Below, in pieces: positions 21,453 through 52,302 of a stretch of 64,000 nucleotides of DNA. The notes below the pieces were generated by a model. The model was not told the DNA's origin and ran no database searches. It saw only the letters and a program-made list of their open reading frames with translations. How positions within the stretch are numbered: the stretch's first letter is position 1; the number at the start of each line of letters is the position of its first letter. Made by a program: the position numbers and the translations under genes. The stretch comes from an uncultured Pseudomonadota bacterium (GTDB lineage: Bacteria > Pseudomonadota > Alphaproteobacteria > Rs-D84): the NCBI GenBank assembly GCA_902793435.1, contig CADBDF010000004.1, positions 1 to 64,000 on the forward strand. Reading direction: 5' to 3'.

Positions 21453-21539
21453 CTCCGTATGCAAACATTATATCATAAAAAAATTCATGAATAAATATAA
21501 AAATTGCTTTTTTAATTATGTTATGCAAACATTTACTCG

Positions 21540-34195: not shown

Positions 34196-34429
34196 TTATT
34201 TTTGCTTTTTATTACTGACTTTTTTATAAGTCTTTGTTTTTGCGGTCGTTTTTTTTACATGCGATTTTTCATTTTTATCATCTTTTTTGGCAGAATCCCT
34301 CATTTCGCGTTTAAACACATTTACGCCATCTGCCAGATTTTTCATCATACCTGGTATAGATTTATGACCAAACAAAATGACCAGCAAAACAACAATAACC
34401 AGTATTTCCATCCAACCTAATCTTCCCAT
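34196..34429 (-). CDS. tatA: Sec-independent translocase subunit TatA
   Basis: 77 residues. N-terminal helix followed by the TatA hinge and FG motif (MEILVIVVLLVILFGHKSIP), an amphipathic helix and a long Lys-rich tail. It forms the pore of the Tat system with TatBC found 9 kb away. GGAGG stands 5 bases before the ATG. It is 15 bases behind the SPOR-domain gene and probably co-transcribed with it. Confidence 0.93.
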   Translation of the reverse strand: MGRLGWMEILVIVVLLVILFGHKSIPGMMKNLADGVNVFKREMRDSAKKDDKNEKSHVKKTTAKTKTYKKVSNKKQK

Positions 34430-34444: not shown

Positions 34445-35242
34445 TTATTTGGCCACATAACAATCCAATCCATCAGATTTTGCATTACGGCAAAAACCAT
34501 TTGCATCACTGCTGTTATTAAACGCGACACGCAAACGATATGTTGTCCGTCCATCTTTCAACACCGATGCCAAAACAACGAACTGTTTGCCTGCAAACAA
34601 ACTGCTGTGCGCCGCGCGAATTTTTTTGCCCGCCGCATTTGCCGCATCACGCGTAGCATAAGAACCAAATTGCACATACCACGCCGCCCCAGATTTTGCG
34701 ACTGTTTTTTGAGCCGCCGGCTTATTCACTGACTTTGGTGCAGGTTTGGCCACTGGTTTTTGTTGAACAACAGGTTTTGGCGCAGGTGCCGCATCAACCT
34801 TGTTTGGATTAAATACAACCTCGCGTCTATCTTGCACAACGCGCACATCTGGTTCTGGATTGACCGCAACCTGTTGGGGTTGGGGTTGTGACTGAACCTG
34901 AACAGGTGGCATTGGCATAGGTTTTGGTTCCACACGCACATTATCAGGCACCTGTAAAGGTTGCTGATTTGCGTCCATCACCGGGGCCGATGGCATTGGC
35001 ATATCGCCACCATCAACGACAACCTCTGGTTCGGCATCTAAATCAATTTCTACGGACGAAGACGGCGTGCCAGACACAGTCCGCACAATAATATATGTTG
35101 CCAGCGCAATAACAACCAACCCTATTCCCAATAACAACCAAGGTTTCCGGGGACGTGGGCTAACAAACGCGGCCTCTGGCAAAGAATCAGATGCGTCTGC
35201 ATCTAAATCCAATAAATCTAAATTTGTATTATCTTCGTTCAT
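34445..35242 (-). CDS. SPOR-domain membrane protein
   Basis: 265 residues: acidic cytoplasmic start, one membrane helix (about 33-55), a long Pro/Gln-rich periplasmic linker and a C-terminal SPOR domain (about 187-265; WYVQFGSYATRDAAN). SPOR domains bind denuded septal peptidoglycan, so it is likely a division-site protein. The start region carries an unusual 26-base palindrome that overlaps the AAGGGAG ribosome site. tatA follows in the same unit. Confidence 0.85.
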   Translation of the reverse strand: MNEDNTNLDLLDLDADASDSLPEAAFVSPRPRKPWLLLGIGLVVIALATYIIVRTVSGTPSSSVEIDLDAEPEVVVDGGDMPMPSAPVMDANQQPLQVPDNVRVEPKPMPMPPVQVQSQPQPQQVAVNPEPDVRVVQDRREVVFNPNKVDAAPAPKPVVQQKPVAKPAPKSVNKPAAQKTVAKSGAAWYVQFGSYATRDAANAAGKKIRAAHSSLFAGKQFVVLASVLKDGRTTYRLRVAFNNSSDANGFCRNAKSDGLDCYVAK

Positions 35243-35249
35243 AAAAAAC

Positions 35250-35305
35250 TCCCTTAGATTCTTTTATCTAAGGGATATTATATCACAAAAAACACACTAA
35301 AACAA
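35250..35305 (-). promoter_or_regulatory. Promoter and palindrome of the SPOR-tatA unit
   Basis: -35 TTGTTT (35300-35305), 17-base spacer, -10 TATAAT (35277-35282). The palindrome TCCCTTAGAT (35250-35259) / ATCTAAGGGA (35266-35275) covers the likely transcription start and includes most of the ribosome site AAGGGAG (35249-35255). It could be a repressor operator, or an RNA hairpin if transcription starts at its outer edge. Confidence 0.6.
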
Positions 35306-35320
35306 ATACAGATATCATTT

Positions 35321-35461
35321 TTATTTTGGTTGTGCTCCAAAATGTGGCGGCACAATCAATTTTTGGTTTTGTTCTACAATCGGTTCAACCTCGCAATTAC
35401 AGCAACCGGCAACCGCCGCCACTGACAAAACCGCCAAACAAATCAACAAAGCTTTTTTCAT
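35321..35461 (-). CDS. 46-residue lipoprotein
   Basis: Small ORF with signal MKKALLICLAVLSVAAVAGC, a proper lipobox VAGC with the lipidated Cys at residue 20, then CNCE and a 24-residue Pro/Gln-containing tail. AAGGAAAAGAG precedes the ATG. Entericidin-like in size but not in sequence. Repeat copy B ends 38 bases upstream of its start codon, so the repeat may be part of its promoter or leader. Confidence 0.75.
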   Translation of the reverse strand: MKKALLICLAVLSVAAVAGCCNCEVEPIVEQNQKLIVPPHFGAQPK

Positions 35462-35584: not shown

Positions 35585-35620
35585 ATAAATTATGCCCCAA
35601 TCAATCGATTGGGGCAATAA
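35585..35620 (-). terminator. Terminator of thrS
   Basis: GCCCCAATC (35594-35602) pairs perfectly with GATTGGGGC (35607-35615) around a 4-base loop. AT-rich sequence follows on the minus strand. Confidence 0.8.
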
Positions 35621-46468: not shown

Positions 46469-46540
46469 TTGCCAAAAATCCTTTTATTTACTAATATTAT
46501 ATCACAAATAAACTACAAATAAAACGAAAGTCAAATTATA

Positions 46541-52263: not shown

Positions 52264-52269
52264 ATTATA
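52264..52269 (-). promoter_or_regulatory. -10 box of ftsK
   Basis: TATAAT, 6 bases from the chosen ATG (CGGGGC between). The -35 is weak (TTTAAT at 17-base spacing). The alternative upstream start six codons earlier lies inside this box. Confidence 0.6.
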
Positions 52270-52302
52270 CCACAAAAAATCCTAAAATTAAAGGGGGACG
52301 AA

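What the first reader, a model, noticed from the sequence alone, without database searches (positions are those of the whole stretch)
35250..35305. 26-base palindrome over the start region and ribosome site of the SPOR-tatA unit
TCCCTTAGAT/ATCTAAGGGA is a perfect 10-base palindrome with a 6-base gap. It starts 1 base after the -10 TATAAT and includes most of the AAGGGAG ribosome site. As DNA it would suit a dimeric repressor; as RNA it could hide the ribosome site. It would tie a division protein and Tat export to one signal.
Basis: partly seen in the sequence, partly recalled or inferred. Interest (0 to 1): 0.55.

Follow-up and report, generated by a model that had tools for sequence, protein, structure and literature searches.

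The report
RNA hairpin straddling promoter and ribosome site
In one group of gut bacteria with very small genomes, the DNA just before a cell-envelope gene can form an RNA hairpin that would stop or mute messages arriving from the gene upstream but leave the gene's own message free; it resembles switches known from phage T4 and has not been tested by experiment.

Summary
The palindrome is real: on the minus strand TCCCTTAGAT-N6-ATCTAAGGGA at 35275..35250, one base after TATAAT, its right arm holding most of AAGGGAG, followed by T6 and the ATG of a SPOR-domain gene that precedes tatA. It is the only copy in the 898 kb genome, even with 3 mismatches. The genus is Candidatus Enterousia (by named relatives). 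The hairpin plus T6 occurs in 10 of 10 genomes of one SPOR-protein cluster and 0 of 138 other leaders. Inner stem pairs changed together (AGAT/ATCT to GTAA/TTAC), and loop length varies. That suits RNA pairing, not a fixed dimeric operator. The predicted transcript start lies just after TCCCTT, inside the left arm, so the gene's own mRNA should lack the strand that masks the ribosome site. Only read-through RNA from the upstream lipoprotein gene would form the full hairpin, which also looks like an intrinsic terminator. Most likely it is a terminator fused with a start-site-gated ribosome-site lock that insulates SPOR-tatA from upstream transcription. Phage T4 I-TevI uses the same masking logic. 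New variant of a known kind; no expression data.

The parts
35277..35291 (-). T-rich extended -10 promoter (TTTTTGTGATATAAT) of the SPOR-tatA unit
   Evidence: the same TTTTT-RTGRTATAAT element stands before nearly all SPOR genes printed (a few have TACAAT or other variants)
35266..35275 (-). Left arm TCCCTTAGAT; the first six bases complement the SD and lie upstream of the predicted transcript start
   Evidence: bases 2-7 after the -10 have pairwise identity 0.94 in the clade against mean 0.47, maximum 0.84, in 138 neighbourhoods
35269..35270 (-). Predicted transcript start (A at 35269, the 8th base after the -10; 35270 is the 7th)
   Evidence: Inference: purine at the 7th base in 108 of 138 other leaders; in the clade the 7th is T in 10 of 10 and the 8th A or G in 10 of 10. 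Not mapped.
35260..35265 (-). Hairpin loop (AAAAGA)
   Evidence: loop length varies among relatives
35250..35259 (-). Right arm ATCTAAGGGA, holding most of the SD
   Evidence: AAGGGAGTTTTTTATG identical in 10 of 10 clade genomes
35249..35255 (-). Shine-Dalgarno sequence AAGGGAG
35243..35248 (-). T6 tract between SD and ATG; U-tract of the terminator-like hairpin
   Evidence: leader hairpin plus T-run 10 of 10 in the clade, 0 of 138 elsewhere at -8 kcal/mol
34445..35242 (-). SPOR-domain membrane protein gene (265 aa)
   Evidence: Pfam SPOR PF05036, E 3.2e-10
34196..34429 (-). tatA-like gene (77 aa), 15 bases after SPOR
   Evidence: Pfam TatA_B_E PF02416, E 3.9e-09; linkage 10 of 10
35321..35461 (-). 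Upstream small lipoprotein-like gene (46 aa), the source of any read-through RNA
   Evidence: lipoprotein-like frame upstream in 10 of 10 clade and 133 of 138 other loci; no Pfam match

Best explanation
The palindrome works as an RNA hairpin on read-through transcripts. RNA polymerase arriving from the upstream lipoprotein gene transcribes the whole 10-bp stem and then six U: the hairpin ends part of these transcripts as an intrinsic terminator, and in those that continue it holds the ribosome site of SPOR closed. RNA polymerase starting at the gene's own extended -10 promoter begins inside the left arm, after TCCCTT, so its mRNA lacks the masking strand and is translated. The effect is to insulate SPOR-tatA from upstream transcription in a spacer of 78 bases. 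Shown here: sequence, conservation in one clade, paired changes in the stem, predicted folds. Inferred: start site, existence of read-through RNA, termination, translational effect.
For: Stem plus T6 in 10 of 10 genomes of one SPOR-protein cluster and 0 of 138 others. Three inner pairs change on both sides (A-U to G-C, G-C to U-A, U-A to A-U) on one branch of the tree (support 88/89), loop size varying. Exchanging the first 9 or 11 bases among clade members weakens folding in 100 of 100 trials; exchanging the first 7 does not, as they are nearly constant. The outer left arm, upstream of the predicted start, is conserved (0.94) where similarly diverged relatives average 0.47. Full-length leader -15.3 kcal/mol, z -4.5; predicted own transcript -4.4, z -1.5. 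SD unpaired 0.17 in read-through RNA, 0.56 in own RNA, clade means. The only other TCCCTT...AAGGGA sites are terminator-like. 35 of 138 relatives outside the clade have a terminator-like hairpin further upstream in the same region, against 64 of 690 shuffles.
Against: No RNA data; the start is predicted. 103 of 138 other leaders have no terminator-like hairpin at -8 kcal/mol in this region, so most relatives do without one. Two of ten clade members (L007, L008) break an outer pair, and L003, L008 and L010 break or bulge inner pairs, although all ten still fold at -8.3 or better. Cutting a leader at the start site also raises SD exposure outside the clade (0.45 to 0.66; 13 of 138 gain over 0.5, against 3 of 10 in the clade), so the exposure numbers alone are weak. 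The stem substitution is one evolutionary event.
Confidence: 0.6

Rival explanations
1. A DNA operator: a dimeric repressor binds TCCCTTAGAT-N6-ATCTAAGGGA just downstream of the -10 and blocks initiation.
For: Perfect dyad at the classic repressor position; outer half-sites TCCCTT/AAGGGA nearly constant in the clade.
Against: Single site in the genome with up to 3 mismatches; spacing between constant halves varies 13-16 bases and inner bases change in both arms together; the right half is already fixed by the SD; the only other similar sites are terminator-like.
Confidence: 0.1
2. A 5'-UTR switch (thermometer, protein- or ligand-sensing) in the gene's own mRNA: transcription starts upstream of the left arm and the hairpin gates translation.
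For: Hairpin covers the SD; full-length leader folds at -15.3 kcal/mol.
Against: The extended -10 is directly before the arm, and purine placement in relatives puts the start 7-8 bases after it. A 10-bp stem over the SD in every mRNA would silence an envelope gene unless opened by something; no Rfam family matches.
Confidence: 0.14
3. A by-product: a chance hairpin in a clade ancestor, kept by descent and kept matched by template switching (quasipalindrome repair), without function.
For: One origin; one stem replacement event; some members carry unrepaired mismatches; most relatives lack it.
Against: Outer arm identity 0.94 against 0.47 in similarly diverged neighbourhoods; the T6 tract in the SD-ATG gap is also kept in all ten.
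Confidence: 0.12

Closest known systems
Phage T4 I-TevI leader (also I-TevII, I-TevIII, segB, Aeh1 mobE; genes e, soc) - PMC2988022, passages seen
   Same: A stem masks the SD only in RNA from upstream promoters; the nearby promoter is placed so that its RNA does not include enough sequence to form the stem, leaving the SD free.
   Different: There it times late phage genes; here a chromosomal gene with a sigma-70-like extended -10, and the stem carries a U-tract so that it may also terminate. Start not mapped here.
Intrinsic (Rho-independent) terminators
   Same: 10-bp stem, 6-base loop, then G and T6; scored as terminator-like.
   Different: Right arm is the SD and the U-tract is the SD-ATG spacer of the next gene; the promoter of that gene abuts the left arm and its predicted start lies inside it.
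IS10/IS50-type protection of transposase from read-through (recalled; the paper opened, PMC5006887 gave no passage on it)
   Same: Outside transcripts fold over the start region, the internal promoter's do not.
   Different: No mobile element here.

Membership tests
Start-site-gated SD masking (T4 I-TevI type) | Stem pairs with the SD | tested here: met
   10 of 10 clade genomes
Start-site-gated SD masking (T4 I-TevI type) | Own transcript starts inside the left arm | tested here: inconclusive
   Predicted from -10 position and purine statistics; not mapped
Start-site-gated SD masking (T4 I-TevI type) | Upstream-initiated RNA crosses the site and is poorly translated | not testable with these tools
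   No expression data; co-directional lipoprotein gene upstream in 10 of 10
Intrinsic terminator | Stable stem followed at once by a U-tract | tested here: met
   only 4 G-C pairs of 10, so strength is uncertain
Intrinsic terminator | RNA 3' ends in the U-tract | not testable with these tools
   No RNA data
Dimeric repressor operator | Fixed half-site spacing and sequence across relatives | tested here: not met
   Gap between TCCCTT and AAGGGA 13-16; inner four bases of two kinds
Dimeric repressor operator | Protein binds the DNA | not testable with these tools
   None
Known Rfam leader element | Match to a curated family | tested here: not met
   no match at the site; two sub-threshold hits elsewhere

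The most novel reading that the evidence does not exclude
Within about 50 bases one clade of streamlined bacteria has fused promoter, transcript start, terminator of the gene before and ribosome site of the gene after into one overlapping element: the same strand is promoter DNA for one polymerase and a lock plus terminator for another. Relatives place terminator-like hairpins in other positions in the same region (18 with the hairpin abutting the T-run before the -10, 17 further upstream, of 138), which would make this a natural series of solutions to insulating neighbours when intergenic space shrinks.
Probability: 0.4. Interest if true: 0.5.

Novelty: new variant of a known kind. Interest (0 to 1): 0.36.

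Why it matters
It would be a chromosomal, non-phage case of start-site-gated ribosome-site masking, joined to a terminator, in an uncultured gut lineage with a reduced genome. It shows how read-through can be controlled when the spacer between genes is under 80 bases, and it gives a precise, mutation-ready hypothesis. It also warns that a palindrome at an operator position need not be an operator.

Tried and rejected
Operator regulon: only one full site, and two other TCCCTT...AAGGGA sites are terminator-like. Genus-wide hairpin between the discriminator and the SD: some distant leaders fold well (for example L048, L105, L106), but the 138 non-clade leaders as a group hardly beat dinucleotide shuffles (mean z -0.17; 3 of 100 shuffled group means as low), and the head-swap excess (0 of 100 as low) shrinks to a group z of -0.75 with one representative from each of 49 clusters; not claimed. 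Rfam: nothing at the site. Other hairpin-locked starts in the genome: none convincing in 460 kb. Paper searches on terminator/promoter overlap and read-through masking gave the T4 review (PMC2988022) and nothing in their listings that plainly matches the fused arrangement; many subscription papers are not held, so no claim of absence from print is made.

Rows dropped: the script that finds SPOR starts failed on 12 loci (L041, L043, L061, L072, L107, L111, L141, L146, L147, L194, L209, L233), and 226 leaders were reduced to 148 distinct ones, which include some from other genera of the family. In one search, 6 of 156 genus genomes had no SPOR match. Of the 23 matching genomes of other genera, I fetched 8.

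Full report
OBSERVATION. The palindrome is exactly as described, on the minus strand at 35275..35250, one base after the TATAAT of an extended -10 (35291..35277) and running into AAGGGAG, T6 and the ATG of the SPOR gene at 35242. The SPOR domain and the following tatA-like gene are confirmed by Pfam, and a tatC lies elsewhere in the same window. The 26-mer is unique in the 898 kb genome, even with 3 mismatches. A 10-bp perfect stem by itself is not rare here: 11 overlapping rows (6 distinct hairpins) in the window against 0.8 expected, most looking like terminators.

RELATIVES. The family search found SPOR in 106 of 113 genomes, and the genus search in 150 of 156. Named records place the genus as Candidatus Enterousia: L165 is Ca. 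E. onthequi, and PMC12306168 (passages seen) puts Enterousia in order Rs-D84 of the Alphaproteobacteria, with genomes near or below 1 Mb. From the fetched loci I obtained 148 distinct leaders. The promoter element and the order lipoprotein-SPOR-tatA are shared widely: lipoprotein-like frame upstream in 10 of 10 clade and 133 of 138 other loci, tatA-like frame downstream in 10 of 10 and 126 of 138. The leader hairpin is not shared: it is confined to ten genomes (L002-L010, L032), which are exactly one cluster of SPOR proteins at normalised bit score 0.5.

RNA OR DNA. In these ten, AAGGGAGTTTTTTATG is identical. The left arm keeps TCCCTT except for one base in two genomes, while the inner four bases come in two matched kinds, AGAT/ATCT (6 genomes) and GTAA/TTAC (4 genomes, one group with support 88/89; single members deviate by a base or an insertion), with loops of different size. 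Joint change of both arms with free spacing is what RNA pairing allows and a fixed dimer site does not. Swapping the first 9 or 11 bases between members lowers stability in 100 of 100 trials; swapping the first 7 does not, because they are nearly constant. Caution: the stem replacement is one event, and template switching could also produce matched arms.

WHERE THE TRANSCRIPT STARTS. In the 138 other leaders the 7th base after the -10 is a purine in 108, mostly A. In the clade the 7th is T in all ten and the 8th is A or G in all ten. The predicted start is therefore the base directly after TCCCTT. So the six bases that pair with the SD would be promoter DNA but not part of the gene's own mRNA. 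Yet those bases (positions 2-7) are conserved at 0.94 pairwise identity, against a mean of 0.47 and a maximum of 0.84 in 138 neighbourhoods of ten related genomes. A natural reason is that they act when transcribed from further upstream. Full leader: -15.3 kcal/mol, z -4.5. From the predicted start: -4.4, z -1.5. Clade mean SD openness is 0.17 against 0.56, but leaders outside the clade also open when cut there (0.45 to 0.66), so this number is supportive only.

TERMINATOR. The stem is followed by G and T6, scored as terminator-like. Leader hairpin plus T-run at -8 kcal/mol or better: 10 of 10 in the clade, 0 of 138 elsewhere; shuffled clade leaders 11 of 500. In the region upstream of the -10, 35 of 138 relatives have a terminator-like hairpin instead (18 abutting the T-run before the -10, 17 further up), against 64 of 690 in shuffles. 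Against an obligatory terminator, 103 of 138 have none at that threshold. The genome's two other TCCCTT...AAGGGA sites sit after genes and are followed by T-rich sequence.

MECHANISM. Best supported (0.6): the hairpin acts on read-through RNA, ending some of it and locking the ribosome site of the rest, while the own promoter, starting inside the left arm, makes an unlocked mRNA. Steps shown are sequence, conservation, paired change and predicted folding. Steps inferred are start site, read-through, termination and translation. The same masking logic is documented for T4 I-TevI and others (PMC2988022, passages); that it could be joined to a terminator in a chromosomal spacer is the variant here. 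In a survey of about half the genome no other identifiable gene showed it, so it looks like a local device, not a regulon.

VERDICT. Real and conserved within a small clade; the operator reading is unlikely, and the RNA reading is right in kind but probably acts on upstream RNA. Modest interest.

Noticed in passing
window 21467-21481, 35277-35291, 46496-46510, 52264-52278 (all minus strand): A T-rich extended -10 element TTTTTNTGRTATAAT occurs 4 times with at most 1 mismatch, against 0.73 expected; it may be a main promoter type of this genus.
   Followed up: partly
L015, L025, L037, L064, L067, L077, L125, L148, L150 and others, upstream of SPOR: In 18 relatives a terminator-like hairpin abuts the T-run of the extended -10, so terminator and promoter overlap in another way.
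   Followed up: partly
window 35321-35461 (-): A 46-aa lipoprotein-like protein with conserved ending EPIVEQN.KLIVPP.FG..PK and no Pfam match; a lipoprotein-like frame of this kind is next to SPOR in 143 of 148 loci.
   Followed up: partly
L048 leader (also L045): A different leader palindrome, GTGGCATC...GATGCCAC, with the SD in the loop; possibly an independent device.
   Followed up: no
window 35593-35616: A perfect 10-bp hairpin TGCCCCAATC...GATTGGGGCA just after thrS with poor T-runs on both sides.
   Followed up: no
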